43,201 bases of DNA, from contig MNJR01000119.1 of NCBI GenBank assembly GCA_001920415.1, forward strand, positions 1 through 43,201, written 5' to 3'. The notes beneath the pieces were generated by a model, which ran no database searches, was not told the DNA's origin, and worked only from the letters and a program-made list of their open reading frames with translations. The stretch comes from Acidobacteria bacterium 13_1_20CM_3_53_8. GTDB taxonomy: Bacteria > Acidobacteriota > Blastocatellia > Pyrinomonadales > Pyrinomonadaceae. Both the position numbers and the translations under genes were made by a program. Below, one piece after another: positions 2,887-43,201 of the stretch (positions are counted from its first letter, which is position 1; each line of letters opens with the position of its first letter).

Positions 2887-3402
2887 TCAACGGACGCGTG
2901 CGCGGCGCGCCTCTTCCCTTACCACCACTGTCCCGGCTATGAAGTCATGCAGCCCGCGCCCCTGCTGGTTGAAGGCCGCTACGATAAACCCAAGTCCGAG
3001 TGTGAGGAATGAAAGAGTGTAGCCTATAAGATGTCTGACAAGCACGCGGACTATTCCAGCGCGCTCTCCATTCTTGCGCTCTATGCGCAACCCTGTAGCC
3101 CACTTTCCTATTGATTGGCCGCGCCACATAGGAAGCAGCAGCAAGTCAACTACGGCCACAGCCGCAGCAATCACCAGCCCAGTAGTCTCCGTAGTGTCGC
3201 CAGCCGAGCGCGTGCCGCCACCGAACAGGCGCGCCGCCAGCGTCATGAAAGCAACGATGCCGACCAGCACTATGTAGTCAACGAGAAACGCTCCACAACG
3301 CAAAGAGAATGGCGCGCGAAAGCGCTCGACGTGCGCAAGCGAATGCGCACGCGCGTTCGCGTGTGTATCAACCAGAGTTGCTCGTTCAATATTCGCGGCC
3401 AT
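2887..3402 (-). CDS. RDD family membrane protein
   Basis: Matches the RDD family: an Arg and Asp in the first helix (FSLRCGAFLVDYIVL), a second helix around residues 75-95, then the conserved IGKWATGLRI motif and a final helical hairpin ending in LHDFIAGTVVV. Length (171 residues) is typical. RDD proteins are integral membrane proteins of mostly unknown function, some implicated in ion exchange. About 30 polar residues precede the first helix. The start at 3402 is only a few bases from the repeat element 3409-3508, so its leader overlaps that hairpin. It sits in the FHA/kinase cluster and probably shares its transcript. Confidence 0.9.
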   Translation of the reverse strand: MAANIERATLVDTHANARAHSLAHVERFRAPFSLRCGAFLVDYIVLVGIVAFMTLAARLFGGGTRSAGDTTETTGLVIAAAVAVVDLLLLPMWRGQSIGKWATGLRIERKNGERAGIVRVLVRHLIGYTLSFLTLGLGFIVAAFNQQGRGLHDFIAGTVVVREEARRARVR

Positions 3403-3408
3403 AAAAGA

Positions 3409-3508
3409 CAGTTTTCAGTTTTTAGTTTTCAGTTTTCAGTTCGTATTTTTAAGTTTTCAGAAAGAAGCGAACCGGCTTTTAACTTAAAACTGAAAACTAA
3501 AAACTGTT
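3409..3508. repeat. Heptamer hairpin element, CAGTTTT family
   Basis: Left arm of CAGTTTT 7-mers and right arm of AAAACTG 7-mers, separated by an apical segment with GAAAGAAGCGAACCGG then CTTTTAACTTAAAAC. It lies between the RDD gene and the FHA segment, overlapping their flanks by almost nothing. Confidence 0.9.
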
Positions 3509-3510
3509 CT

Positions 3511-4071
3511 TCATCCTATGAGAAAATGTAGCATCGTTTCGCCCAGGCGAAGCTTGTCGCCGTTCTCAAGGACGCGCGGTTGATGCGGCGCTAGGCGCAC
3601 GGTGTCGTTGTCGCGTCCCAAGACAACCGTGCCGTTTACGCTCCCAAGGTCTTCTATAAGGAAGGTCTCGCCCTTGCGCCAGATTCGCGCGTGTTTTCGG
3701 GAAACTTTCGTTTCTAGATCGAAATTTGAAAGATCAACTTCGGGAAAAATGTTCGAGTTCGGGTCTGTTCTCCCGATTAGATTGCTCTCCTTCTGCAAGA
3801 CGAACGAAGAATCAAGCTCTGTGGTTCCCGCGACCACAAGCTTTGCTGTCGCGCGCGCAGCACGCAATGGCTCGCTTGCGCCTATAAGGGGCTGGCGCTG
3901 TCCGCAGTGCGCGCAGAATAGATCATCAGCAGCTATGCGCCCACCGCAGAAACCGCAGTAGACCATCTCGACCTGCACGGTTTCACTTGCGCCCACCTGG
4001 CCTGACACAACTCCGTATGTGACTTCGCCTGTGCGAATTTTTTCGGCGTGGCTGGCGAGCACCGCGCGCAT
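3511..4071 (-). CDS. Zinc-ribbon plus FHA domain protein, probably the detached C-terminus of the adjacent kinase
   Basis: The reading frame holds a second zinc ribbon (YCGFCG and FCAHCG, about residues 38-58) and a C-terminal FHA domain (LIGRTDPNSNIFPEVDLS, KVSRKHARIWR, DLGSVNGTVV). Its first residues, MRAVLASHAEKI, and the codons before them (SAAE) are the usual end of a Ser/Thr kinase domain. They overlap the 3' end of the kinase frame at 3933-5261 in another frame. I infer that the ancestral gene encoded zinc ribbon-kinase-zinc ribbon-FHA from 5261 to 3511 and that a frame-changing deletion near 4080-4110 split it. Whether the FHA part is translated on its own from the ATG at 4071 is unknown. 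FHA domains bind phosphothreonine peptides, often on the partner kinase. Confidence 0.8.
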   Translation of the reverse strand: MRAVLASHAEKIRTGEVTYGVVSGQVGASETVQVEMVYCGFCGGRIAADDLFCAHCGQRQPLIGASEPLRAARATAKLVVAGTTELDSSFVLQKESNLIGRTDPNSNIFPEVDLSNFDLETKVSRKHARIWRKGETFLIEDLGSVNGTVVLGRDNDTVRLAPHQPRVLENGDKLRLGETMLHFLIG

Positions 4072-26086: not shown

Positions 26087-27631
<1,545 letters not shown>

Positions 27632-27637
27632 GAAGAG

Positions 27638-27714
27638 CAGTTTTCAGTTTTTAGTTTTCAGTTTTAAGCCAAAGGCTTTTTCTGAAAACTGAAAACTGAA
27701 AACTAAAAACTGTC
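27638..27714. repeat. Heptamer hairpin element between atpD and atpC
   Basis: CAGTTTT 7-mers on the left and CTGAAAA 7-mers on the right, apical segment AAGCCAAAGGCTTTTTC. It fills the atpD-atpC gap and ends five bases before the atpC start, replacing a normal ribosome-binding leader. Confidence 0.9.
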
Positions 27715-27718
27715 TTTT

Positions 27719-28117
27719 ATGCTTCAACTAGAAATTGTAACGCCTGAGCGGCGCGTGATCTCTGAATCAGTTGACATGGTGACCGTGCCGGGCTTGAACG
27801 GCGAGCTTGGGATTTTGCCCGGACACACGCAACTCATCTCGCAACTGCGTACAGGCGTTTTGACCTACACGCAGGCGGGCGCAACCTACAAGCTTCACGT
27901 CTCCGGCGGGTTCGTGGAAGTGAGCGACGACCGCGTTTCTGTCCTTGCAGAAGTCGCAGAGCGACCCGAAGAGATTGACGCCGCACGCGCTCGCATAGCA
28001 CACGAGCACGCCGAAAAAACTCTGAGCGCGTGGAGCGGCACCGTAGAAGATTTCGAGATCGCCCGCGCCAAACTTGAACGCTCAATCGTCCGCCTACAAC
28101 TAGCCGCAGGAGAATAA
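27719..28117 (+). CDS. atpC: F1Fo ATP synthase subunit epsilon
   Basis: A 132-residue epsilon subunit: N-terminal beta sandwich (EIVTPERRVISESVDMVTVPG, in parts VTPERRVISE and VPGLNGELGILPGH) and C-terminal two-helix domain (EIDAARARIAHEHAEKTL). It couples rotation to catalysis and restrains ATP hydrolysis. The ATG directly follows the repeat element, so there is no clear Shine-Dalgarno sequence. Confidence 0.95.
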   Translation: MLQLEIVTPERRVISESVDMVTVPGLNGELGILPGHTQLISQLRTGVLTYTQAGATYKLHVSGGFVEVSDDRVSVLAEVAERPEEIDAARARIAHEHAEKTLSAWSGTVEDFEIARAKLERSIVRLQLAAGE

Positions 28118-29357: not shown

Positions 29358-29468
29358 AAATTCACAACAAGTTTCGGCGGCTTTTTTGCTGACCGAAAAC
29401 GACTGGGGGCGACAAGAGAGGAGCGGATCGGGAGCCATTCTTCTTCAAGTCGCCTTCAGTGTTTAAGA

Positions 29469-29553
29469 GCAGTTTTCAGTTTTGAGTTTTCAGTTTTCAG
29501 CAAAAGCGTCGCGCGCCTTTCTTAAAACTGAAAACTCAAAACTGAAAACTGCT
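29469..29553. repeat. Heptamer hairpin element overlapping the pdxJ 3' end
   Basis: CAGTTTT/GAGTTTT 7-mers on the left, AAAACTG on the right, apical segment CAAAAGCGTCGCGCGCC then TTTC. Its right end, 29536-29553, encodes the last residues and stop codon of PdxJ. The preceding gap 29358-29468 shows nothing else. Confidence 0.9.
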
Positions 29554-30297
29554 CTTTTCAATTGCTTCTTTCATCTCTCTTACTGCTTGTTCTAATCCTA
29601 CAAAAATTGAGCGGGCTACGATGTTGTGGCCTATGTTGAATTCGGTGATCTCTTCGATTGCCGAGACTGCGCCGACGTTGCGGTAAGTGAGACCGTGACC
29701 TGCTGCGACTCGCAGGCCGTATTGTGATGCGAGTATTGCGGCTTCGCGCAGGCGCTTCAATTCCTGCGCGACGTGCGCTGCGCCTTCGCCGTGAAACCCG
29801 CGCGCGCCGAGTGTGGCTTCGGCGTAAACCGCCGTGCAGAGTTCGACCTGATGCGCGCCGACAGTGTGCGCAGATTCTATCTGGTGCACGTCCGGGTCTA
29901 TGAAGAGACTGGTGGTGATTCCTGCTTCGCGCAGACGATGAACTGCGGCGCGGACTAGCGAAAGATTCGTGCGAACATCTAACCCGCCTTCCGTTGTTAT
30001 CTCGTTAGGATTTTCTGCCACGAGCGTCACACAGTCCGGCTTCGCATCGAGCGCTATCTTCATCATCTCTTCGGTCGCGGCCATCTCTACGTTCAGGTAA
30101 GTCATGACCATACGGCGCAGAAGATGTAAATCTTCATCCTGAATATGTCGGCGGTCGCCGCGCAGGTGAATCGTGATGCCGTCCGCGCCAGCGTGTTCGC
30201 ACGCGACGGCAGCCGCAACCACGCCAGGCTCCGGCGCTCGCCGCGCCTGTCTAACGGTCGCCACATGGTCAATGTTTACGTTTAATCTCGCACACAT
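29536..30297 (-). CDS. pdxJ: Pyridoxine 5'-phosphate synthase
   Basis: Catalyses the last ring-closing step of DXP-dependent vitamin B6 synthesis from 1-deoxy-xylulose 5-phosphate and 3-amino-2-oxopropyl phosphate. It shows the family start LNVNIDHVATVRQARR, DGITIHLRGDRRHI, TLVAENPNEITTEGGLD (Glu in the TLVPE position), FIDPD and VAAGHGLTYRNV. Length of 253 is normal. The ending SSFQF and the stop are translated from the repeat element at 29469-29553, an unusual repeat-derived C-terminus. A second repeat hairpin (30310-30394) lies just upstream of the start. Confidence 0.95.
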   Translation of the reverse strand: MCARLNVNIDHVATVRQARRAPEPGVVAAAVACEHAGADGITIHLRGDRRHIQDEDLHLLRRMVMTYLNVEMAATEEMMKIALDAKPDCVTLVAENPNEITTEGGLDVRTNLSLVRAAVHRLREAGITTSLFIDPDVHQIESAHTVGAHQVELCTAVYAEATLGARGFHGEGAAHVAQELKRLREAAILASQYGLRVAAGHGLTYRNVGAVSAIEEITEFNIGHNIVARSIFVGLEQAVREMKEAIEKSSFQF

Positions 30298-30309
30298 GGT
30301 AACTACAGA

Positions 30310-30394
30310 GCAGTTTTCAGTTTTTAGTTTTCAGTTTTAAGAAAGGTGCGCGATGCTTTTACTTAAAACTGAAAACTAAAAACTGAAAACTGTT
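30310..30394. repeat. Heptamer hairpin element, CAGTTTT family
   Basis: CAGTTTT arms with an apical AAGAAAGGTGCGCGATGC then TTTTACTT. It fills the gap between the glycosyltransferase and pdxJ, both on the minus strand. Confidence 0.9.
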
Positions 30395-30398
30395 CTTG

Positions 30399-31265
30399 TC
30401 ATTGCTTTACAGCCATCTCCTTTCTCCGTCTTCCGTCCGAGGGCGCTTGGGGTTGGGCGGAGTGGTGCAGTTCACGTTCGCGCTCTTGGGCGGCGACGAG
30501 GAAGGCTGTGCGCGCAGAGGCTATGGCTGAATCGTAGAGGCCGCGACGAACGCGCTGGCGTATGGTCTGCACTTCCTGAATCATACGAAGACTGTCGCGC
30601 GCGTAGTTGCCGGAAGCGTCCAGTGTACCCGTGCGGTGATCCCAGCGCACTGGAATTTCCCTAAGATTTAGCCCGGCCAGATGCGCGACGTAGAGCAATT
30701 CCACGTCGAAGCCGAAGCGGTCAATCGCCCCAGCCTCTATGACCGGGCGGCAGACGCTCATGTTGAATGCCTTGAAGCCGCACTGCGTGTCCCAGAAGGG
30801 CAAGCCCGTTGCGAGCTTTACTATCAAATTAAAGACGCGGCCTCCCTGCTCGCGCCGCCAGGGTTGATGCACACCTATCAAACTTCTATCCAACGCGCGC
30901 GAGCCGAAAGTTAAGTCGCACTCGCCGCGCTGAATCGGTCTGATGAGTTTGGGCGTCTCTGTAATTGGGGTTGAAAGGTCTGCGTCAGTGAAGAGCGCAA
31001 TCGAGTTGCGTGCTGCTAGCAATCCTGTGCGAACCGCGTGACCCTTTCCGCGATTAGGCTCTATACGAATGAGACGCGCGCCGCTCGCGTTGCTGCTTGC
31101 AAAACTCTCTTCAGCGACGCGGGCTGTATCGTCCTCAGAACCGTCGTCAACGACAATGATTTCGCTTCCTGTGACGTGACGGTTCATGTAATCGAAGACA
31201 ATAGGCAGAGTCTCGCCCAGCCGCGCGGCTTCGTTGTAAGCAGGGATGATAACGGATAGAGACAT
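30399..31265 (-). CDS. Family 2 glycosyltransferase (dolichyl-phosphate glucosyl/mannosyltransferase-like)
   Basis: A GT-A-fold enzyme: SVIIPAYNEAARLGET, VVDDGSEDDT, NRGKGHAVRTG, the metal-binding DAD in FTDADLSTP, GSRALDRS and CGFKAFN with the acidic DVELLYVA. This resembles polyprenyl-phosphate beta-glucosyl/mannosyl synthases that make lipid-linked sugar donors. No transmembrane helices are present, so it acts at the cytoplasmic membrane face. The C-terminal 40 residues are charged and variable. Probably transcribed with pdxJ. Confidence 0.88.
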   Translation of the reverse strand: MSLSVIIPAYNEAARLGETLPIVFDYMNRHVTGSEIIVVDDGSEDDTARVAEESFASSNASGARLIRIEPNRGKGHAVRTGLLAARNSIALFTDADLSTPITETPKLIRPIQRGECDLTFGSRALDRSLIGVHQPWRREQGGRVFNLIVKLATGLPFWDTQCGFKAFNMSVCRPVIEAGAIDRFGFDVELLYVAHLAGLNLREIPVRWDHRTGTLDASGNYARDSLRMIQEVQTIRQRVRRGLYDSAIASARTAFLVAAQERERELHHSAQPQAPSDGRRRKEMAVKQ

Positions 31266-31266
31266 G

Positions 31267-31353
31267 AAAACAGTTTTTAGTTTTCAGTTTTTAGTTTTCA
31301 GAAAGAATCTAATTGCTTTTAACTTAAAACTGAAAACTAAAAACTGAAAACTG
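31267..31353. repeat. Heptamer hairpin element, CAGTTTT family
   Basis: CAGTTTT/AAAACTG arms around GAAAGAATCTAATTGC then TTTTAACTT. It lies in the divergent region between the glycosyltransferase and the processing peptidase. Confidence 0.9.
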
Positions 31354-31470
31354 CTTTTACGGAATATAGCACAAGAGGGGACGGCTGCGCTTTCTGCCAG
31401 AGGCCGCGAGCTATGGTATATTTAACCGGGAGTCTGTCTCAAGAATTTCCGTGCGGGCTAATTGGTAAGT

Positions 31471-35586: not shown

Positions 35587-36324
35587 GTGGCACTATCTCG
35601 CAAATGCGTTCCCTTCACTCCCTTTGACCGTGAGCTTGCGAAAAGCAGCATCGCCATAGTCACGGCTGGCGGCGTTCACATGAAAGAGCAGGAGCCTTTC
35701 AACATCGCGGACGAGCTTGGCGATCTCACTTTCAGAATCATCCCGCCCGATGTTGATTCAAAAAATTTGATGGTCACCCATCATCACTACGATCATTCGG
35801 ACGCAGACCATGACATCAACGTAGTCTTCCCCATTGACGTGCTGCGCGATCTTGTAGAAGAAGGTTTCGTGGGCGGGGTGGCGCGCAAGCATGTGGGCTA
35901 CATGGGATACACAATGCAGTTGAAAGCCATGTACGAAGGCACTGCGCCTGAGATAGCTAACGAAATTGACAGAGGTTCAAGGGCTGATGCAGTTGTTCTG
36001 ACAGGCGGCTGACCGAACGTCTGCCACCGCACGGTCGTAGCGGTTCAGCGAGAGATTGAGATGAAAGGAATCCCAACGGTTCTTATCACGGTCAGCCCGG
36101 AAGTTTCGGGGCAGATGCGTCCGCCCCGCGCGCTCTACCCTAAAGGCTTCAAGATAGGCAACAGTCTGGGGAAACCCGGCATGCGCGAGTTGCAGCGCAA
36201 GGTGCTGCGCGACGCGCTCACGCTTTTAACCGAGAACACGCGCCCCGGCTCTGTCATCACACTCGAATACCCGGAATACGGCGATTACTTTGAGCCGCCG
36301 AAAGTCAGGGCTGAAAAGCAGTGA
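35587..36324 (+). CDS. Glycine/sarcosine/betaine reductase selenoprotein B-like protein, UGA at codon 142
   Basis: Reading through the TGA at 36010-36012 gives one 245-residue protein. The N-terminal part has DSKNLMVTHHHYDHSDADHD and VFPIDVLRDLVEEGFVGGVA, typical of the GrdB/PrdB family, and then ADAVVLTGG-U-PNVCHRTVV, with U in the redox motif position and a Cys four residues on. After it follow REIEMKGIPTVLITVSPE and IGNSLGKPGMRELQRKVL. In clostridia this family forms the substrate-specific subunit of amine reductases; in other bacteria stand-alone forms of unknown substrate exist. The start is a GTG with AGGGG upstream. A stem-loop after the UGA (36026-36044) fits a bacterial SECIS. Confidence 0.87.
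36026..36044 (+). promoter_or_regulatory. Candidate bacterial SECIS hairpin
   Basis: ACCGC pairs with GCGGT around the loop ACGGTCGTA. The stem starts 13 bases after the UGA and the loop contains GGUC, as in the E. coli fdhF SECIS loop. Bacterial SECIS elements lie directly downstream of the UGA inside the gene, as here. Confidence 0.6.
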
Positions 36325-36329
36325 TAAGA

Positions 36330-36437
36330 ACAGTTTTCAGTTTTTAGTTTTCAGTTTTCAGAAAAAGCAAATGCTTTCTGATTACATACCAACTGAAAAC
36401 TAAAAACTGAAAACTGAAAACTGAAAACTGAAAACTG
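36330..36437. repeat. Heptamer hairpin element, CAGTTTT family
   Basis: CAGTTTT arms and six AAAACTG-type units on the right, apical GAAAAAGCAAATGCTTTC. It ends three bases before the pfkA start codon. Confidence 0.9.
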
Positions 36438-36440
36438 TTT

Positions 36441-37562
36441 ATGTATAGAACCATCGGAGTTTTGACTGGAGGAGGCGATGCGCCGGGCTTGAATGCTGTG
36501 ATTCGCGCGGTGGTAAAGACTGCCATAGGCGAATACGGTATGCGCGTCATCGGCATAGAGGACAGTTTCGAGGGGCTGCTCAGTCCTACGAAGACGCGCG
36601 AGTTGACGGCGGCACACGTGCGCGGGCTTCTGCCGCGAGGCGGCACTATCTTAGGCGCGCGCAACCGTGGCAGCTTCGTGGAGCAGGGCGAAGACGGGAC
36701 GGTCGGCAAACATCATGATGTTTTTCAGGAGGCGATTAAAAATCTGGAGAAGCTTGGTATTGACGCATTAGTAGTTCTTGGCGGCGAAGGTTCCCTGGCA
36801 ATCGCTGCGGAGTTTGATCGTCAGGGTGTTCCTGTGGTGGGCGTGCCGAAGACGATTGATAACGACCTTGCTTGCACGGAACTGACATTCGGCTTTGCTA
36901 CGGCGCTAGACATTGCGACCGAAGCGATTGATCGCCTTCACACTACTGCCGAATCGCACGACCGCGTGATGATACTGGAAGTTATGGGGCGGCACACGGG
37001 TTGGATTGCGCTGCATTCGGGCGTGGCTGGCGGGGCGGACGTGATTCTCATCCCTGAGATTCCATTTTCTATGGAATCGGTAGCATCGAAGATACGCGAG
37101 CGCGAAGAGTGTGGCTCGCAGTTCAGCATCATGGTCGTCTCGGAAGGGGCTAGAGAGATAAGCGGCCAGCAGATTTATCAGGACAAAGGCGACCGCCAGC
37201 ACGCGCCCAGATTGGGCGGCGTGGGCTTCTTCTGCCAGCATGAACTCGAAGGATTGACGGGCAAGGAAGTGCGTTGCGTAGTCCTTGGACACTTGCAGCG
37301 CGGAGGGCGTCCGAACGCATTCGACCGCATGCTCGCAACCAACTTCGGCTCGTGCGCTGTGCGCGCGCTGGCGCGTGGCGAGCGTGACGTGATGGTAGCG
37401 TTGCAGGCCGCAGACATTATCACAGTCCCCTTGGACGAGGCCGTTGCGAATCTCAAGACAGTGCCGTTCACAAGTCAACTCATTCGCACGGCGCGCGACA
37501 TAGGCATAAGTTTCGGCGCGACGGACGAAGCGTCTTACCACATGTCGCTCGAATGCGTTTGA
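36441..37562 (+). CDS. pfkA: 6-phosphofructokinase (group III type)
   Basis: Phosphorylates fructose 6-phosphate in glycolysis. The conserved motifs are GGGDAPGLNAVIR, VLGGEGSLAIA, GVPKTIDNDLACTE, MEVMGRHTGWIAL, ILIPEIPF and LGHLQRGGRPNAFD. Glycine in GGEGS suits ATP as phosphoryl donor, while the lysine in PKTIDND is shared with pyrophosphate-dependent and group III enzymes such as those of actinobacteria, so donor choice is not settled. Length of 373 fits this group. The start codon directly abuts the repeat element, with no Shine-Dalgarno sequence of its own. Confidence 0.94.
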   Translation: MYRTIGVLTGGGDAPGLNAVIRAVVKTAIGEYGMRVIGIEDSFEGLLSPTKTRELTAAHVRGLLPRGGTILGARNRGSFVEQGEDGTVGKHHDVFQEAIKNLEKLGIDALVVLGGEGSLAIAAEFDRQGVPVVGVPKTIDNDLACTELTFGFATALDIATEAIDRLHTTAESHDRVMILEVMGRHTGWIALHSGVAGGADVILIPEIPFSMESVASKIREREECGSQFSIMVVSEGAREISGQQIYQDKGDRQHAPRLGGVGFFCQHELEGLTGKEVRCVVLGHLQRGGRPNAFDRMLATNFGSCAVRALARGERDVMVALQAADIITVPLDEAVANLKTVPFTSQLIRTARDIGISFGATDEASYHMSLECV

Positions 37563-37709: not shown

Positions 37710-38204
37710 TTGACACAGGATGTAAAAAACCGATTGCAGGCTGAGCTTGAAACGCTTGAATCAGAGCTTCGCGTGCACCTGCCGAAAGAGATAAAGCGAG
37801 CGCTTGAGTTTGGTGATTTAAGAGAAAACTCCGAGTACAAGGCTGCGCTTGACCGCCAGCATTTCATCAAGGCACGCATAGCGGAGCTTCGCCAGCGCAT
37901 CAGCGAAATCGCTTCCATAGACATCTCGAAAGTCCCGCATGACCGCGCAGCCTATGGCTCTACGCTCTTGCTTTACGATTCAGAGCGCAACGAGGAAGTG
38001 ACTTACAAATTGGTTACGCCCGAAGAGAGCGATCCGCAGAACGGCCTCATCTCGACCACTTCACCTGTCGGGAAGAGTTTAATGGGCAAAGAAGAGGGCG
38101 ACGAAGTAACTGTCAGAACCCCTGCGGGTGCTCGCAACTTCGAGATAAGACGACTCACAACGCTGCACGATGAAGTTGGCAAAGAAGAAGCTGGTGAAGA
38201 TTAA
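37710..38204 (+). CDS. greA: Transcript cleavage factor GreA
   Basis: A 164-residue GreA that rescues backtracked RNA polymerase by stimulating transcript cleavage. The N-terminal coiled coil has the acidic-tip motif FGDLRENSEYKAALDRQ, and the C-terminal FKBP-like domain shows ISTTSPVGKSLMGKEEGDEV (split: SPVGKSLMGKEEGDEV) and NFEIRRL. Start is a TTG at 37710 with a good GGAGG seven bases upstream. The integron cassette array starts eight bases after its stop. Confidence 0.95.
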   Translation: MTQDVKNRLQAELETLESELRVHLPKEIKRALEFGDLRENSEYKAALDRQHFIKARIAELRQRISEIASIDISKVPHDRAAYGSTLLLYDSERNEEVTYKLVTPEESDPQNGLISTTSPVGKSLMGKEEGDEVTVRTPAGARNFEIRRLTTLHDEVGKEEAGED

Positions 38205-38212
38205 GCCTTTGT

Positions 38213-38250
38213 AGCTATTTTCCGCGCTCCGTTTGAATGAGTTGTCCGGC
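38213..38250 (-). other. Half attC site at the distal end of the array
   Basis: GCTATTTTCCGCGCTCCGTTTGAATGAGTTG resembles the R''-side half of the attC at 40054-40155 (quoted in part: CGCTCCGTTTGAATGAG). The core reads GTCCGGC (38244-38250) in place of GTTAGGC. The other half, with the recombining R' core, is missing and greA lies there. Confidence 0.7.
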
Positions 38251-38276: not shown

Positions 38277-38825
38277 TTAGTCGAACAGTTCATCTACAGA
38301 CATTCTCCAGCCAGGAACGGCAGGCTCGGCTTCGGCTATCTCACCTCTACGGTAAATCCTTGGACTCTCTGGATCAGAAGCACGATAGACTTTAATCACA
38401 TCATCACTAAGCAAATCTACGTCCCAAACAACTAACGTCCCGGCAGCAAAATAATCTTGGCGCTTTAACGCAATCTCAATTTCCGCCTCTTTCCCATAAT
38501 CGTTCTCACTCCTGATTTCAGCAGCAAAGGTGGGTGCGCCCTCAAGGAATTTCATACCTGAAGATTTGCCTACATAGAAAGCGGCATCGGGGCTAAAGGA
38601 CTTACGATTTGGCAGATTTACTCTGAATCCGACATTATCTGGATACGCGCGTCCGCCCACCTGACGTTCAATTCCTCTGAGACTTACGTAGATCGAACCG
38701 CCTGCGCGTCCGGGCATGTCACCTGTTGGACTCATTAGGACAATTTCTCCATTAACGATTTCAGCTTTCCCATTATTAGGGAGCCGATACAAATCTTCGA
38801 TAGTCGCTTGGGTTTTAGTGGTCAT
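38277..38825 (-). CDS. Cassette gene: Uma2-family (DUF820) nuclease-like protein
   Basis: A 182-residue PD-(D/E)XK-superfamily protein of the Uma2/DUF820 type. It shows ATIEDLYRLPNNGKAEIVNG, the aspartate in SFSPDAAFYVG, the acidic TFAAEIRSENDYG and the WDVDLLSDDVIKVYR strand that follow in this family. Family members are predicted endonucleases and very common in cyanobacteria and acidobacteria, but function is unproven. This is the most distal, hence probably oldest, cassette. Its leader to the next attC is only about 45 bases. Confidence 0.88.
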   Translation of the reverse strand: MTTKTQATIEDLYRLPNNGKAEIVNGEIVLMSPTGDMPGRAGGSIYVSLRGIERQVGGRAYPDNVGFRVNLPNRKSFSPDAAFYVGKSSGMKFLEGAPTFAAEIRSENDYGKEAEIEIALKRQDYFAAGTLVVWDVDLLSDDVIKVYRASDPESPRIYRRGEIAEAEPAVPGWRMSVDELFD

Positions 38826-38868: not shown

Positions 38869-38975
38869 CGCTGAACGCCCGGATTAACCGGGCGGCGCGA
38901 ATCCACACAACATTGAAAGGATAGATTAACATGAGAGACATTCAATCGCCGCTCCGGTTGAATGAGTTGTTAGAC
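38869..38975 (-). other. Integron attC site 2
   Basis: On the minus strand it begins with core GTCTAAC (38969-38975), then AACTCATTCAACCGGAGCGG, and ends with CCGGTTAATCCGGGCGTTCA. Complementary stems are GAGCGGCG with CGCCGC and CAACCGG with CCGGTTAA. It follows the acetyltransferase gene. The R' core (GTTCAGC) deviates from consensus. Confidence 0.88.
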
Positions 38976-38986
38976 CGCCCATTAGA

Positions 38987-39430
38987 TTATATCTGGCGGT
39001 TTTCTAATCTGATAAGACCTGCCGCCGTGTTTCTAAATCCACATTCATCATAAAACTTTTGCAAGTGTGGCTCGAAATCCACATGGACCCATTTAAGAGC
39101 GCGACTCTCGGCTTCTGCCACCGCTCGTCTAACAAGTTCTCGACCAATACCACGTCGCCGAAACTCTGGATGTACGAGCGTGTCAAGAATGAACGAATGC
39201 TCGCCGCCATCCCACGCTAGATTAACGAAACCTACCAACTGTTCTTCATGATAAGCGCAGACGAACGCTAGGCTGCGACTCAGCACAGGTTGGAAGTCTT
39301 GCCATGTATGATCATCCCAAGCAGCAGTCATCAGCGCGTTTAGATCATCGTTTGTCAGCGGAGGGCTAACGCGATAAACCAGATGAGCCATTTCGTGATT
39401 AGCTTGTTCGGATTTCAGCATCTTGTTCAT
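38987..39430 (-). CDS. Cassette gene: GNAT-family N-acetyltransferase
   Basis: A 147-residue acetyltransferase with the acetyl-CoA binding motif A FRRRGIGRELVRRAV, preceded by FILDTLVHPE, and the motif B region FYDECGFRNT. GNAT genes are among the most frequent integron cassette cargo, some modifying aminoglycosides or toxins. The substrate is not evident here. The stop codon lies 12 bases from attC 2, and its leader is about 30 bases, without an obvious ribosome site. Confidence 0.9.
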   Translation of the reverse strand: MNKMLKSEQANHEMAHLVYRVSPPLTNDDLNALMTAAWDDHTWQDFQPVLSRSLAFVCAYHEEQLVGFVNLAWDGGEHSFILDTLVHPEFRRRGIGRELVRRAVAEAESRALKWVHVDFEPHLQKFYDECGFRNTAAGLIRLENRQI

Positions 39431-39460: not shown

Positions 39461-39562
39461 GTCTAACGCCTGAATTATCATGGCGGGAAATATCTGCTAA
39501 TAGCATCCAAGTTGTCGATAAAAATCAAGCTACATCTGCTCCGGTTGAATGAGTTGTTATAT
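39461..39562 (-). other. Integron attC site 3
   Basis: On the minus strand the core is ATATAAC (39556-39562), followed by AACTCATTCAACCGGAGC, with CAGGCGTTAGAC at the other end (R' GTTAGAC at 39461-39467). It follows the HicA gene by 13 bases. Confidence 0.85.
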
Positions 39563-39574
39563 TGCGGGTTGGCT

Positions 39575-39796
39575 TTAAATCGCTTTGACGAATTCATCAA
39601 CCGTGAGATTTGCAGAACGGATAAGACTCCTCAACGTACCTCTTGCCACTTCTTTGTGATTGGGAATAGAAAGCGTTACGATTTCGCCTTCTTTGGTCAT
39701 GATAATGTGGCTGCTCTCTTGACGCGCTACGCTCCAGCCCAGGGACTCAAATACGCGCACTACTTCCTGCCCGCTCAAAACCTGAAGCGAAGCCAT
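39575..39796 (-). CDS. hicA: Cassette gene: HicA-type mRNA interferase toxin
   Basis: A 73-residue HicA-family protein with a dsRBD-like fold: SGQEVVRVFESLGWSVARQ, the catalytic-histidine-type SSHIIMTKEG and IPNHKEVARGTLRSLIRSA. HicA cleaves mRNA and is neutralised by HicB. The start overlaps the hicB stop by one base (TAATG). This is the second gene of a two-gene cassette. It is the reverse of the usual hicA-hicB order, as also seen in some HicAB loci. Toxin-antitoxin cassettes are known to stabilise large cassette arrays. Confidence 0.88.
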   Translation of the reverse strand: MASLQVLSGQEVVRVFESLGWSVARQESSHIIMTKEGEIVTLSIPNHKEVARGTLRSLIRSANLTVDEFVKAI

Positions 39797-40002
39797 TATG
39801 CTGCGACCTCAACCTGCTGCGTCTCAATAGTCAATGGCAAGCCTTTCTCTGCTCTCACTTCTAGACACAAGGCAATAGCGTCTTTAATATTTTCAACAGC
39901 CTCTTGCTTGGTTTTTCCCTGACTCACGCAACCGGGAATAGAAGGACACTCAGCAATCCAAATACCATCCTCGTCTCTATCAAGCGTTATGTTAAATCTC
40001 AT
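39796..40002 (-). CDS. hicB: Cassette gene: HicB-type antitoxin
   Basis: The partial RNase-H-like HicB fold is seen in MRFNITLDRDEDGIWIAEC, then PSIPGCVSQGKTKQEAVENI and DAIALCLEVRAEKG. At 68 residues it is the short form lacking a DNA-binding domain. The ATG at 40002 has GGAGG seven bases upstream; a longer frame from 40050 lacks such a site. It is translationally coupled to hicA and first in the cassette, with a leader of about 50 bases. Confidence 0.87.
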   Translation of the reverse strand: MRFNITLDRDEDGIWIAECPSIPGCVSQGKTKQEAVENIKDAIALCLEVRAEKGLPLTIETQQVEVAA

Positions 40003-40053
40003 GGTCAACCTCCAAAGCCAGATGATTACACGACGTAGAAAAACAGGCAAGCA

Positions 40054-40155
40054 GCATAACGCGCGAATTAATCGGGCGGGAAGAATCTAACCAAGCATCC
40101 AACCTTGCGAATGAACTTCAAGCTATTTCCGCTCCGGTTGAATGAGTTGTTAGGC
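40054..40155 (-). other. Integron attC site 4
   Basis: Minus-strand core GCCTAAC (40149-40155), AACTCATTCAACCGGAGCGG, and GATTAATTCGCGCGTTATGC at the far end (R' GTTATGC). The stop codon of the upstream cassette gene lies inside the R'' core. Confidence 0.9.
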
Positions 40156-40590
40156 TGCGGGATTGCTGAGCACATTGCCTTCTGTATCATAGTATTTTGT
40201 CTCTATGTATTCACCCCTCTCGTCACGTTCAATGATTCCTTTACCGCGCAATACTCCCTGCGCATCATAATAATGTTCCTCAGTTTCCATGTTTTCAGAA
40301 TCATAAAAGTGCACTGTGCGCCTTATAAGATTGCCATCTTCTCCATATTCCCTATTTTCTGACTCGAGGCCGGGAGAATAATAATCAACTTCAAACCTAC
40401 GGAACATCCCTCCTTTTCGATTATAGACTTTCCAGCCTGTAATATCCCCAAGCTCATTATGTTCATAATGAATATCGTAGATCATATTCCCATCAGCATC
40501 ATAATCAGTTGTGCGCAACTGAATCCCTGCATCATCACAAATATATGAAGTGCGAGAGCCATTATCAAATTCACGAGTTTCTGTTTTCAT
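40150..40590 (-). CDS. Cassette gene: YwqK/MORN-like repeat protein
   Basis: A 146-residue acidic, tyrosine-rich protein with repeated Y-D-x-G-N-type units (DYDADGNMIYDIHYEHNELG, EYGEDGNLIRRTVHFYDSE, YYDAQGVLRGKG, YYDTEGNVLS). This resembles toxin-antitoxin-associated YwqK/MORN-like or RHS-like repeats. I do not assign a function. ATG at 40590 is preferred; an in-frame TTG lies nine bases upstream. The TAA stop is created by the attC core GCCTAAC, so the reading frame depends on the recombination site. Confidence 0.78.
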   Translation of the reverse strand: MKTETREFDNGSRTSYICDDAGIQLRTTDYDADGNMIYDIHYEHNELGDITGWKVYNRKGGMFRRFEVDYYSPGLESENREYGEDGNLIRRTVHFYDSENMETEEHYYDAQGVLRGKGIIERDERGEYIETKYYDTEGNVLSNPAA

Positions 40591-40608
40591 ACTATTCAAT
40601 GCGAAGCA

Positions 40609-40694
40609 GCCTAACGCCCGGCATCACCCGCGCCCCAGTTCAACGTTCATGAGAGGCATCGTGGCGGGGCGTCGGGTGCATGCCGTTGTTAGAT
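40609..40694 (-). other. Integron attC site 5, of a different subtype
   Basis: Minus-strand core ATCTAAC (40688-40694) and R' GTTAGGC (40609-40615). The stem uses GGCATGCACCCGACGCCCCGCC against GCGCGGGTGATGCCGGGC rather than the CATTCAAC-type stem of the other sites (both quoted in part: CACCCGACGCCCC, GGGTGATGCCGGGC). It is shorter, 86 bases. Confidence 0.8.
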
Positions 40695-40727: not shown

Positions 40728-42554
40728 TTACTTTCGACTAAATTGCTCGAAAATAGAAACTATATCCGCGAAGGGATAAGGGGTATGCTTTTCAGATTCA
40801 CGCAGATATAACGTTTTCAAACGACCGGAATCAATCTTGGTTAGTGATGCAAATCTGTTGAATAACTGCTTCCCGGGGAAATTATTTTTCCATGAGTCAG
40901 AACCTTCTATTAAGCTTTGCTGTAACATCTTAATTGTTTCCTTTATAGAAAACTCTATCCTGCTTTCGTCAACAATCGAATTGATTCTAGTCCTTTCCGA
41001 TTTCGCTTTATCTTGCATCAATGTAGCAAGTTCTTCCGGGGATTTTTCATGGCACGCTTTCGGCATAATATCCATATTGCCAACCAAATTACGGTAGTGC
41101 GCGGATTCTATAAGTGCTGTCGTGTAAGAAACCATTGACTGTGCAATTTCTTTTAATTTAGTTTGGATTTGTTCGGGATCTCTGAGCCAAGAACCTTCTG
41201 GCTCCATCATCGAGAATATACCTGCTAATGCACTCTCATCTAGAAAGTAATTCTCAAGATGATAGCGATTTAGAACTTTAAAGCGCCCCTTCCCAGCCGT
41301 CTCAAGATCAACTGCTGACACTGATAGCGGAATCGCGTCACGGTCACAGAGCATAAAGAATTCTACTCCCCAAATCGTTCTCTCTAATACGGAGGTCATT
41401 ACGGAGGAGAATGACGTGATCAACCCTTTACCCCCGCTAGGGACCAGAACGAGATTAGGGAACTTGTTTTTTAGAATTGTGCCATATACTTGCTTGTCAA
41501 GGCTTGAATCCTCTCCCTCAACTAAAACAAGCTTTTTCCCTAAGGCGATTATTCCTATTGATTGACCAAGGAGTTTCAGTGCTTCATGAGTTTCATCATC
41601 TTCCTTAACAACGATGGCTTGATTTGAAGGCGGGTCTTTCGGCGGCCCTAAAAAAATTACTGAATTCTCCAAAGATGCAGTAATTATGTCAGGAGAGTGC
41701 GTGCAATAGATAAACTGATTATTAGAACCTATATTCTGAAGAGTTTGGAGTAGTTTATAACTTAGTTCAGGATGAAGATGTAATTCAGGCTCGTCGAAAA
41801 TCACTATGGAGTCAGATGGGTTTCGAAGTAGAAAATCAAAAACAATATTGACTACTTCACGCTCACCAGAGCTTAGGCTATCAATAGAGAATTGTTGCCC
41901 TTGATCGGTGTAGTAAAGTTGTTGTTGTTTTGCTTCAGGATCAAGAAGTTCTTTTGGTGCAAGTAACTGACTGAAAGCATTCTTGAATGGGAGCAGCGGG
42001 TCGGGAAAATCTAAACTCATCGTGTGCTCGCCCCGCTTTATGAGGGACTCAGCAGTTCTGGCTATTTCATCACGTCGGCTCTGCATCTTGCGAAATAGGG
42101 AATGCAAGGTATCTTGGAATCTATTCTTCAAAGGAATAAAACTATAATTCCATCCTATTAACTCTTCCCAAGGGTCAGTCATGTCCCAGCTAAAGCTGTA
42201 TGGCTGAATCTGCTGTATGGTTCGATCACTTTCAAATTGAACAACACTACTTTCCCACGTACTACGTCGCTTACTCTTTTGCAACGTCGCAGCAAGCTTC
42301 TGCGCGTCATCAGATAAAGCCGTGTCCAATTCTCTCTTCCCCCAATCATTCTGTTCAGAGTCGGTAGTAGCCTCAATTACAAGGCGAATGTTGGGATATA
42401 CACCGCCCGATTGGAATGCAGCAAGAATGCCCTGAATCAAGCGTGTTTTGCCGACCCCATTAGGGCCAGCTAGAACAACGACGTTTGAAAGATCGCCTAC
42501 GCTAAATTGCTTTATTGGAGGCGTATCTTTCGCATCAATCTGCTTTAATCTCAT
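40728..42554 (-). CDS. Cassette gene: OLD-family AAA-ATPase/TOPRIM nuclease
   Basis: A 608-residue class 1 OLD-like protein. The ATPase has Walker A AGPNGVGKT (29-37), a signature-like SLSSGEREVVNIVFDFL, Walker B SIVIFDEPELHLHPE and the H-loop YCTHSPD. The TOPRIM nuclease domain at about 345-440 shows LVLVEGEDSSLD (glutamate motif) and MLCDRDAIP (DxD). OLD proteins such as P2 Old and the Gabija GajA subunit cut DNA and act in phage defence, so a defence role is likely. No GajB helicase gene is adjacent. At 1.8 kb it is far larger than usual cassette cargo, and very AT-rich relative to the backbone. Confidence 0.92.
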   Translation of the reverse strand: MRLKQIDAKDTPPIKQFSVGDLSNVVVLAGPNGVGKTRLIQGILAAFQSGGVYPNIRLVIEATTDSEQNDWGKRELDTALSDDAQKLAATLQKSKRRSTWESSVVQFESDRTIQQIQPYSFSWDMTDPWEELIGWNYSFIPLKNRFQDTLHSLFRKMQSRRDEIARTAESLIKRGEHTMSLDFPDPLLPFKNAFSQLLAPKELLDPEAKQQQLYYTDQGQQFSIDSLSSGEREVVNIVFDFLLRNPSDSIVIFDEPELHLHPELSYKLLQTLQNIGSNNQFIYCTHSPDIITASLENSVIFLGPPKDPPSNQAIVVKEDDETHEALKLLGQSIGIIALGKKLVLVEGEDSSLDKQVYGTILKNKFPNLVLVPSGGKGLITSFSSVMTSVLERTIWGVEFFMLCDRDAIPLSVSAVDLETAGKGRFKVLNRYHLENYFLDESALAGIFSMMEPEGSWLRDPEQIQTKLKEIAQSMVSYTTALIESAHYRNLVGNMDIMPKACHEKSPEELATLMQDKAKSERTRINSIVDESRIEFSIKETIKMLQQSLIEGSDSWKNNFPGKQLFNRFASLTKIDSGRLKTLYLRESEKHTPYPFADIVSIFEQFSRK

Positions 42555-42567
42555 AGGAGGCTCCTAT
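42553..42567 (-). promoter_or_regulatory. Palindrome covering the ribosome site of the OLD gene
   Basis: ATAGGAG-C-CTCCTAT, seven-base perfect arms around a one-base centre, covering the Shine-Dalgarno GGAG and the first two bases of the ATG. The one-base centre makes a dimer-binding operator more likely than a hairpin. Confidence 0.45.
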
Positions 42568-42617: not shown

Positions 42618-42725
42618 ATCTAACGCCCGAATTAACGCGGCGGCGCAAGAAGCATACAACACACGAAGCAAAAGACAATCTTGAAAGGCATCCAATCGCC
42701 GCTCGCGTTGAATGAGTTGTTAGGC
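42618..42725 (-). other. Integron attC site 6
   Basis: Minus-strand core GCCTAAC (42719-42725), AACTCATTCAACGCGAGC, and CGCGTTAATTCGGGCGTTAG at the far end (R' GTTAGAT 42618-42624). CAACGCG pairs with CGCGTTAA and GCGGCG with CGCCGC. It is the best-formed attC in the array. Confidence 0.93.
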
Positions 42726-42731
42726 GCGCCG

Positions 42732-43157
42732 TCAGTCGGAAAGATGAAATCCCCGTTGACTATCCTGCCATTCTTTAGCGTGCTGCTTGCGTACTTTCAA
42801 CTCGTCGCTAGACTCAACACCACCATCAGAATCGGTCGCCCCATTTTGTTCAAGCAACCTTACGATTGGATGATATTTATCCCAATCCAACAGAAAGCGA
42901 GATTGCATCGCCAACTCAAGCGGTTTCTCTGCGTAAATAGTTGCCGCTGGCTCATCCGCAATTAGGTTTGGATCGGCACCATGCTTAAGCATCAACCGGA
43001 GAATAGATGCATTGCCTTGCAAGATAGCGACAAACAAAGCTGATGCGCCTTGATCGCAACGAACGTTCAGATTAAGACCGTTTCGGATAAGGCGGCTAAC
43101 TTCGCCAACATTGTCTTCGACAATGGCAGTCATAAGTTGTTCGTGAAGACTCATCAT
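42732..43157 (-). CDS. Cassette gene: ankyrin-repeat protein
   Basis: A 141-residue protein with ankyrin units: LMTAIVEDNVGEVSRLIRNG, SALFVAILQGNASILRLMLKH, GADPNLI and LELAMQSRFLLD...IVRLLEQNGA. The repeats cover residues 5-110 and a charged tail follows. Ankyrin proteins mediate protein binding; no specific role can be given. The stop codon lies seven bases from attC 6, and the ATG at 43157 (or 43154) is about 30 bases from the next attC. Confidence 0.88.
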   Translation of the reverse strand: MMSLHEQLMTAIVEDNVGEVSRLIRNGLNLNVRCDQGASALFVAILQGNASILRLMLKHGADPNLIADEPAATIYAEKPLELAMQSRFLLDWDKYHPIVRLLEQNGATDSDGGVESSDELKVRKQHAKEWQDSQRGFHLSD

Positions 43158-43187: not shown

Positions 43188-43201
43188 GCCTAACGCCCGA
43201 A
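43188..43201 (-). other. Integron attC site 7, partial at window edge
   Basis: GCCTAACGCCCGAA on the plus strand is the R' end (GTTAGGC on the minus strand) of another attC, matching 42619-42631. It shows that the array continues to the right. Confidence 0.8.

What the first reader, a model, noticed from the sequence alone, without database searches (positions are those of the whole stretch)
40728..42554. OLD-type AAA-TOPRIM nuclease carried as an integron cassette
The largest cassette encodes a complete OLD-like protein with intact Walker A, Walker B and TOPRIM acidic motifs. OLD proteins are established phage-defence or interference nucleases, and cassettes of 1.9 kb are uncommon. It suggests that integrons outside Proteobacteria also collect defence genes.
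Basis: partly seen in the sequence, partly recalled or inferred. Interest (0 to 1): 0.8.

Follow-up and report, generated by a model that had tools for sequence, protein, structure and literature searches.

The report
PARIS-like defence gene in integron cassette
A large integron cassette of an environmental bacterium carries an intact single-gene relative of the PARIS anti-virus system, an ATP-driven sensor fused to a nuclease, which adds to recent evidence that integrons store bacterial immune genes.

Summary
Window 40728-42554 (-) is an intact 608-aa ATPase-Toprim protein, alone between two attC sites in canonical orientation, in a cassette of about 2.0 kb. The attCs are genuine: a model built from them finds 115 sites in the host genome, and in three relatives such sites sit beside an integron integrase. 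No integrase was found in the host assembly, so this is a CALIN (array lacking an integrase) or an assembly gap. The interpretation needs correcting: it is not a classical OLD nuclease. Its best profile by far is PADLOC AriAB, single-gene PARIS (E 2e-63), and its effector half aligns to fused AriAB proteins, not to the one OLD tested. It scores a third of core AriAB and misses Pfam's DUF4435 cut-off, so it is a divergent sister family. Five full-length homologues were found (Nostoc 74%, Parcubacteria 53%, a viral-database contig 55%, two relatives 46% and 32%); no attC was detected beside them. Most likely it senses a phage product and cleaves RNA, probably tRNA, to abort infection; that is inferred, not tested. 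Defence genes in integrons are already published; new here are the family and its carrier.

The parts
40728..42554 (-). Fused AriAB-like (PARIS-like) ATPase-Toprim gene, 608 aa
   Evidence: ORF; PADLOC AriAB 213.1 bits, E 2.2e-63; Pfam AAA_21 68.8 and AAA_15 61.5 bits, both over cut-off; DUF4435 20.8 bits, below cut-off 27; only AriAB match in the genome at E 1e-10
42444..42467 (-). Walker A GPNGVGKT (residues 30-37)
   Evidence: sequence; G30, N32, G33, G35 and K36 invariant in 6 of 6 family members
41862..41876 (-). ABC signature LSSGE (residues 227-231)
   Evidence: sequence; invariant in 6 of 6
41787..41807 (-). Walker B IVIFDEP (residues 250-256)
   Evidence: sequence; D254, E255 and P256 invariant in 6 of 6
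41496..41519 (-). Toprim EG...D motif (E346, G347, D353)
   Evidence: sequence; invariant in 6 of 6; hhalign places it on the EG motif of a two-gene AriB
41337..41345 (-). Toprim DxD motif D404-R405-D406
   Evidence: sequence; invariant in 6 of 6; D404 and D406 invariant in all 10 rows of a wider alignment, 4 of the family and 6 distant
41238..41261 (-). HLENYFLD motif (residues 432-439)
   Evidence: 6 of 6 family members and 3 of 3 core fused AriAB match the motif; the OLD, the Paraburkholderia fusion and the Gloeobacter protein do not
42561..42565 (-). Shine-Dalgarno-like AGGAG upstream of the ATG
   Evidence: sequence
42618..42725 (-). attC site of the preceding (ankyrin) cassette; upstream border of the AriAB-like cassette
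40609..40694 (-). attC site of the AriAB-like cassette; folds as a single strand with z -4.9
40057..40155 (-). attC site of the MORN-like cassette
39463..39561 (-). attC site of the HicBA cassette
38871..38974 (-). attC site of the GNAT cassette
38222..38250 (-). Degenerate half attC at the end of the array beside greA
   Evidence: sequence; 12.3 bits, E 0.6 with the attC model, so not significant
43189..43201 (-). Partial attC, cut by the contig end
   Evidence: 11.1 bits, E 1.3 as a cut match
42732..43157 (-). Neighbouring cassette gene: ankyrin-repeat protein
   Evidence: Pfam
40150..40599 (-). Neighbouring cassette gene: weak MORN-like repeats
   Evidence: Pfam MORN_2 below cut-off
39575..40050 (-). 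Neighbouring cassette: HicB-like antitoxin and HicA toxin
   Evidence: Pfam
38987..39430 (-). Neighbouring cassette gene: GNAT acetyltransferase
   Evidence: Pfam
38277..38825 (-). Neighbouring cassette gene: Uma2-family putative nuclease
   Evidence: Pfam

Best explanation
A self-contained, single-gene relative of PARIS, carried as an integron cassette. SHOWN: ABC-type ATPase half (about 1-320) and Toprim-type half (about 325-608) in one intact, conserved frame; both halves align to fused AriAB proteins; it sits alone between attC sites. INFERRED from the biochemistry of two-gene PARIS: the ATPase half forms an oligomer that holds the Toprim half inactive; a phage product (in E. coli PARIS, an anti-restriction protein such as Ocr) binds it; the Toprim sites then pair and cut host RNA, most likely the anticodon stem of a few tRNAs, using two metal ions held by E346, D404 and D406, so translation stops and infection aborts. 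In two-gene PARIS the effector is released before it pairs. In this fusion it cannot leave, so activation must be a rearrangement within the oligomer. Carriage as a cassette would let an integrase move it.
For: PADLOC AriAB is the best of 5027 models (213 bits; next PtuA1 114, AriA 83) and the best hit of all five other family members (174-201 bits). A profile of five members finds AriA as its best solved chain (E 9.2e-15; OLD 6p74 E 5.3e-6). Profile alignment of the six-protein family against single proteins (local): effector half 97.2, 97.2 and 96.7% with three core fused AriAB, 92.0% with a Paraburkholderia fusion, 0.2% with one OLD, 0.1-1.4% with five unrelated proteins; ATPase half 98.7-99.3% with core AriAB, 22.5% with OLD. 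EG, DxD and ENY motifs line up with a two-gene AriB. The predicted model (pLDDT 72.5, parts of 319-396 under 50) gives a strand-helix alternation of Toprim type at 341-427. Rousset et al. count single-gene AAA+DUF4435 fusions as PARIS (passages of PMC9122126). AriB biochemistry: PMC12409363 (introduction and sections e, f).
Against: The PADLOC AriAB match covers only model positions 263-657 of 694, at about a third of the score of core members (656-676 bits). DUF4435 is below Pfam's cut-off in the window protein (20.8) and Nostoc (24.4), and is not listed at E 0.5 for the other four. In two homologues Old scores 53-55 bits and GajA up to 65; a third has a sub-threshold OLD-like_TOPRIM hit. hhalign to the one two-gene AriB is weak (5.2%, E 0.0076) and near zero in global mode. 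No solved AriB chain is among the 60 chains shown by the profile search, whose best stretches all lie in the ATPase half. In the second model's Foldseek list OLD and GajA are in the top 50 and AriA is not (in the list of the first, poorer model AriA was). The ATPase fits PtuA (Z 17.6) better than AriA (14.8). The tree leaves the nearest kin open. No activity, trigger, target or expression was tested.
Confidence: 0.6

Rival explanations
1. A class 1 OLD-type DNA nuclease: a single-gene ATPase-Toprim enzyme that degrades DNA.
For: Same domain order and single-gene layout. Foldseek of the second model lists T. scotoductus OLD (6p74, rank 11) and GajA (rank 4) but no AriA in the top 50, with TM-scores of only 0.22-0.25. 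phmmer to 6p74 E 1.2e-4 over the ATPase. Old and GajA profiles score 50-65 bits in two homologues.
Against: No OLD-like_TOPRIM match in the host genome at E 0.001; Old absent from the 25 best PADLOC hits of the window protein; effector half 0.2% to the one OLD tested; HxENY absent from that OLD. Only one OLD sequence was compared.
Confidence: 0.17
2. A silent passenger: a once-functional defence gene stored in an integrase-less array far from any promoter, giving no protection here.
For: No integrase over the cut-off in the assembly; cassettes far from the integron promoter are thought to be poorly expressed (PMC12409362 section 16).
Against: Intact frame, invariant catalytic residues, few changes at codon positions 1 and 2 and an upstream AGGAG. 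This speaks to upkeep over the family's history, not to expression now.
Confidence: 0.12
3. Not defence: an ATPase-Toprim protein with a cellular role such as cell-cycle or chromosome work.
For: An archaeal OLD-family ATPase is reported to act in cell-cycle progression rather than defence (PMC12796447, start of abstract in the listing).
Against: Patchy distribution: 3 of 297, 3 of 162 and, with a profile at a looser limit, 6 of 396 genomes, host included, samples overlapping; homologues in distant phyla and a viral-database contig; lower GC (42%) than the chromosomal part of the contig (53%); mobile cassette.
Confidence: 0.08
4. A Septu-like system: PtuA-type ATPase working with a separate nuclease.
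For: PtuA1 is the second-best PADLOC family (114 bits); PtuA gives the best structural Z over residues 1-333.
Against: The protein has its own Toprim half; no PtuB-like gene among the six neighbouring cassette proteins scanned.
Confidence: 0.03

Closest known systems
PARIS, single-gene (fused) AriAB
   Same: ABC ATPase followed by a DUF4435-like Toprim effector in one protein; best profile match; HxENY and DxD motifs shared.
   Different: 608 aa against about 700 for the three core members compared; a third of their profile score; DUF4435 below cut-off; carried in an integron cassette.
PARIS, two-gene AriA + AriB (E. coli B185 type)
   Same: Same two activities expected; catalytic motifs line up with those of one two-gene AriB.
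   Different: One protein, so the effector cannot be released; statistical match to the single two-gene AriB tested is weak.
OLD nucleases (class 1 P2/Ts OLD; class 2 GajA)
   Same: ATPase-Toprim order; class 1 is also a lone gene; whole-model Foldseek hits.
   Different: No OLD Toprim profile match over cut-off; no HxENY in the OLD tested; effector half not alignable to it.
Septu PtuA / retron PtuA ATPase
   Same: ATPase fold, best structural Z.
   Different: PtuA works with the HNH nuclease PtuB; here the nuclease half is Toprim and fused.
Integron-borne defence cassettes of Vibrio and mobile integrons (Darracq 2025, Getz 2025, Kieffer 2025, known to me here only as described in PMC12409362)
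   Same: Defence gene as a single cassette in an integron array.
   Different: Different gene family; an array without a detected integrase in an unnamed environmental lineage; a larger cassette.

Membership tests
PARIS (fused AriAB) | Match to a fused AriAB profile (published rule: at least 80 bits for AAA_15+DUF4435, 20 for AAA_21+DUF4435) | tested here: met
   PADLOC PDLC02981 213.1 and PDLC02982 76.2 bits; rule from PMC9122126 passages. That these PADLOC models equal the published profiles is my inference; the match is partial (263-657 of 694).
PARIS (fused AriAB) | DUF4435 (PF14491) over its Pfam gathering score of 27 | tested here: not met
   20.8 bits in the window protein, 24.4 in Nostoc, not listed at E 0.5 for four others. 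Hence filed as a PARIS-like sister family, not as a core member.
PARIS (fused AriAB) | AAA_15 or AAA_21 ATPase over cut-off | tested here: met
   AAA_21 68.8 (cut-off 27), AAA_15 61.5 (32.1)
PARIS (fused AriAB) | Catalytic Toprim residues and ENY motif | tested here: met
PARIS (fused AriAB) | Clade with AriAB in a tree | tested here: inconclusive
   Six-member family 94/93, just under the starred level; deeper forks open and long branches flagged
PARIS (fused AriAB) | AriA/AriB fold | tested here: inconclusive
   ATPase half: AriA Z 14.8, PtuA 17.6; the effector half was not covered by the rows
PARIS (fused AriAB) | Trigger-induced tRNA cleavage and abortive infection | not testable with these tools
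   needs experiments
OLD (class 1) | OLD-like_TOPRIM (PF20469) | tested here: not met
   no match in the host genome at E 0.001; not among the protein's hits at E 0.5; sub-threshold in one homologue (13.0 bits, cut-off 23.2)
OLD (class 1) | ATPase-Toprim in one lone gene | tested here: met
Integron gene cassette | Gene followed by attC in canonical orientation, R'' RYYYAAC and R' GTTRRRY boxes | tested here: met
   Both flanking sites carry both boxes. Some other window sites have variant boxes.
Integron gene cassette | attC type associated with an IntI | tested here: met
   In relatives G309, G305 and G297 integrases lie divergently beside 7, 2 and 1 such sites; that of G297 has an internal stop
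Complete integron | intI beside the array | tested here: not met
   No match over cut-off in G000; the contig ends in an attC. Assembly gap not excluded.

The most novel reading that the evidence does not exclude
A distinct class of AAA-Toprim immune proteins: compact fused PARIS relatives whose effector is never released, activated inside a homo-oligomer, light enough (about 2.0 kb) to travel as one integron cassette, in a lineage whose genome holds over a hundred scattered attC sites as a store of immune genes.
Probability: 0.3. Interest if true: 0.62.

Novelty: new variant of a known kind. Interest (0 to 1): 0.45.

Why it matters
Two-gene PARIS is explained by release of its nuclease; the single-gene form cannot work that way, and a review calls its place among OLD proteins unsettled. 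A compact, single-gene member that fits in one cassette is a convenient test case. It also extends integron-borne immunity from Vibrio and mobile integrons to a different lineage with a very large attC complement, where TIR, HicA and PemK/MazF-type genes are cassettes too.

Tried and rejected
Compactness as adaptation to integrons: rejected as an explanation of size, because the five homologues with no attC detected have about the same length (603-617 aa).

Homologues in other integrons: none found. The attC model gave one match in the loci of four homologues (L014-L017), a 25-bp one in L015 (9.4 bits, E 4.2), and none at E 0.1 in the viral one. A generic R''...R' pairing scan gave 0 in 5 loci, but it finds only 2 of the 5 true sites of the window, plus one overlapping pair, and 11 and 6 pairs, not checked one by one, in arrays with 22 and 12 model sites. 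Flanks were short: about 0.5 to 5 kb.

Distribution: matches in 3 of 297 and 3 of 162 genomes (protein query, E 1e-30) and 6 of 396 (profile, E 1e-20, three of them partial and distant), the host included in each; the samples overlap. Plasmids gave only hits under 60% identity (41 records), phages 4.

VIA rows covered residues 1-333 for the most part, and OLD is not among its 50 rows, which excludes nothing. The Toprim half was never folded or searched alone. Rfam gave no match over a gathering score.

A 16S search to place the organism found none, but its control rings in only 9 of 14 known genomes, so this says little. A viral scan with a core AriAB query found nothing; a scan with the viral homologue found only itself.

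Literature: eight searches listed no paper, by title and abstract start, on PARIS in an integron cassette. The three primary integron-defence papers were not read, so the absence is weak. The two PARIS structure papers are not held.

Full report
OBSERVATION. It lies between two attC sites, 42618-42725 and 40609-40694, 64 bp and 34 bp from start and stop. In the minus-strand reading both sites carry R'' RYYYAAC and R' GTTRRRY boxes and the gene precedes its own attC, the canonical cassette orientation. From R' to R' the cassette is about 2009 bp. Folded as single-stranded DNA (plus strand), two of the five window attCs beat shuffles by more than 3 sd (z -4.9 and -3.1); the other three do not (z -0.8 to -1.6), and in only two of five does the lowest-energy fold pair the two ends.

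IS IT A REAL INTEGRON ARRAY? A covariance model from the five window sites found 115 sites at E 1 or better in the host genome, these five included, with only 150 of 942 candidates scored; by my count of that listing they lie on 29 contigs. I then used 81 sites in ten array loci plus the window's five. Dropped from the 86 rows were four that repeat window sites (L013) and one weak opposite-strand echo in L062. Every one of the 11 loci has its sites on one strand. The 72 intervals (three over 4 kb left out) have a median of 710 bp, and the longest ORF of 30 aa or more is co-oriented with the attC in 56 of the 70 intervals that have one. The 14 anti-oriented ones include ORF-poor short cassettes and the window's HicBA cassette, where a chance antisense frame is longer than the true genes. 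No integron integrase reaches the cut-off in the host; the best matches (82 and 72 bits, cut-off 265) lack the middle of the model and look like Xer recombinases, which is my inference. Among 40 genomes, host included, 24 have an integrase match at E 1e-30 and 21 are over the cut-off; 19 have attC matches at E 1e-6, host included. Four contigs of relatives appear in both listings. I fetched three: the integrase is on the minus strand and the attCs on the plus strand, the nearest 1.1 to 1.8 kb beyond it: 7 sites in G309, 2 in G305, 1 in G297, whose integrase has an internal stop. The fourth, G259:C33, has an integrase fragment about 3.7 kb from an attC on the same strand and was not fetched. 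So the attCs are true integron sites, and the host array is a CALIN or is cut off from its integrase by an assembly gap. The window is a whole contig and ends inside an attC. IntegronFinder's authors note that draft genomes inflate CALIN counts because similar attCs complicate assembly (passages of PMC9024848).

WHAT THE PROTEIN IS. Pfam: AAA_21 and AAA_15 over cut-off; DUF4435 at 344-572 with 20.8 bits, under its cut-off of 27. PADLOC: AriAB 213 bits, then PtuA1 114 and AriA 83. For calibration, two core fused AriAB from plasmids score 676 and 656 bits over nearly the full model, a Paraburkholderia fusion 582 on the second AriAB model, and a Gloeobacter protein 148. The window family scores 174-213 over about positions 250-677. 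It is therefore a divergent sister of core fused PARIS. Against this reading, Old scores 54.8 and 53.5 bits and GajA 65.3 and 49.5 in the two relatives' homologues, and the Parcubacteria homologue has a sub-threshold OLD-like_TOPRIM hit. The six-protein family was cut at residue 325 and each half compared with single proteins by hhalign, local mode. Effector half: 97.2, 97.2, 96.7% (core AriAB), 92.0 (Paraburkholderia fusion), 90.5-93.5 (L067-L069), 74.2 and 61.5 (L075, L071), 65.2 (Gloeobacter), 5.2 (two-gene AriB), 0.2 (OLD), 0.1-1.4 (five unrelated controls). ATPase half: 98.7-99.3 (core AriAB), 98.6 (Paraburkholderia fusion), 99.4 (Gloeobacter), 22.5 (OLD). An earlier run, in what the output shows to be global mode and partly cut from view, agrees for core AriAB and for OLD in the effector half, but gave near zero for two-gene AriB and L075 and 71.8 for the ATPase half of OLD. 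Targets were single sequences and only one OLD was used. The motifs EG, DxD and ENY line up with those of two-gene AriB; an AriB E26A mutant does not cut (PMC12409363 section f). That E346 is the counterpart of E26 is my inference.

DISTRIBUTION AND MOBILITY. Full-length homologues found: Nostoc mirabile (74%), Parcubacteria LiPW_30 (53%), a viral-database contig (55%), G051 of the same class (46%) and G038 of the same family (32%). The closest is a cyanobacterium and the one in the same family is the most distant, which points to horizontal transfer. Against Nostoc, DNA similarity covers the gene and stops near its ends (query 194-2001 of a gene at 187-2013; codon-position identities 78/88/44%). 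No attC was detected beside a homologue, with limited sensitivity and short flanks. Recombinase genes lie near some of them by my reading of the ORF lists, which were not scanned with profiles. Gene GC is 42%, the array 45%, the rest of the contig 53%.

MECHANISM. In E. coli PARIS an AriA hexamer holds three AriB copies; phage triggers such as Ocr release AriB, which dimerises and cuts tRNAs in the anticodon stem (introduction of PMC12409363; commentary PMC11455837, read whole). The conserved ATP-binding and Toprim residues here fit the same logic, but in a fusion release is impossible, so activation must lie within the molecule or oligomer. RNA as substrate is inferred from kinship only. The trigger is unknown.

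STRUCTURE. AlphaFold2 on ten sequences gave pLDDT 72.5, pTM 0.44, with a strand-helix alternation at 341-427 that fits Toprim, though 380-396 is under pLDDT 50. Foldseek's top 50 are mostly retron and PtuA chains, with GajA, OLD, Rad50 and RecN also listed and no AriA. VIA-align: PtuA Z 17.6 (4.0 A over 265), AriA 14.8 (3.8 A over 242), SMC heads 13-16, over residues 1-333 for the most part. The effector half was not tested by fold. The tree groups the six proteins at 94/93, and window with Nostoc at 100/99, but leaves the deeper order open.

NEIGHBOURS AND CONTEXT. 57 cassette proteins were scanned: 7 of the window and 50 of the 66 best ORFs of the other ten loci (13 anti-oriented and 3 under 75 aa left out). 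PADLOC hits at E 1e-8, likewise capped, include TIR-TM (6e-67), candidate families PDC-S66 and PDC-S15, and mad2. So other defence-like cassettes exist; no count of defence cassettes is claimed.

NOVELTY. Integrons in Acidobacteriota and 13 other phyla were known (PMC8618304 passages), as were defence cassettes in Vibrio (at least 16 of 179 in V. cholerae, 9 of 57 tested in V. parahaemolyticus) and mobile integrons, and Darracq et al. found such systems streamlined in size (PMC12409362 section 16). Xanthomonas integrons: 20 orthologous genes, 12 systems (PMC12444791 passages). The organism here is unnamed. Its class has 162 held genomes, which argues against the large proteobacterial classes; that it is an acidobacterium is my guess from recall. 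New, as far as the eight literature searches go: a divergent fused PARIS family, and its carriage in an integron cassette.

Noticed in passing
G000, 29 contigs: 115 attC-like sites (E 1 or better, 150 of 942 candidates scored) scattered over the genome, several separate groups on single contigs (for example C24 and C97), without a detected integrase.
   Followed up: partly
L055:2675-3064, L055:3640-4010, L055:5731-6115, L055:6009-6398, L062:7777-8166: Five cassettes of 278-285 bp, with no ORF or only tiny ones, in different arrays. Whether they are the same sequence was not tested.
   Followed up: no
L055:15088-15984 and L062:9515-11050: TIR-type proteins as integron cassettes in the same genome, PADLOC E 7.7e-18 and 1.9e-11.
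   Followed up: partly
L071:2071-3870, L075:2071-3867, L067:2298-3962, L068:1740-3335, L069:1673-3268: Two further groups of ATPase-Toprim-like fusions with H(L/I)E-Y motifs in viral-database contigs (531-599 aa), unlike core AriAB.
   Followed up: partly
L088:1-4239 (Paraburkholderia sabiae plasmid): An annotated ATPase/DUF4435 gene pair lies directly beside a fused AriAB gene: possibly two PARIS forms in tandem.
   Followed up: no
window 38156-38250: The array ends in a degenerate half attC next to the stop codon of greA, which may mark the original insertion point.
   Followed up: no
window 3397-3515, 27626-27721, 29458-29560, 30299-30401, 31259-31362, 36319-36446: AT-rich repeats (CAGTTTTCAGTTTT... 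with inverted copies) recur between genes of the contig.
   Followed up: no
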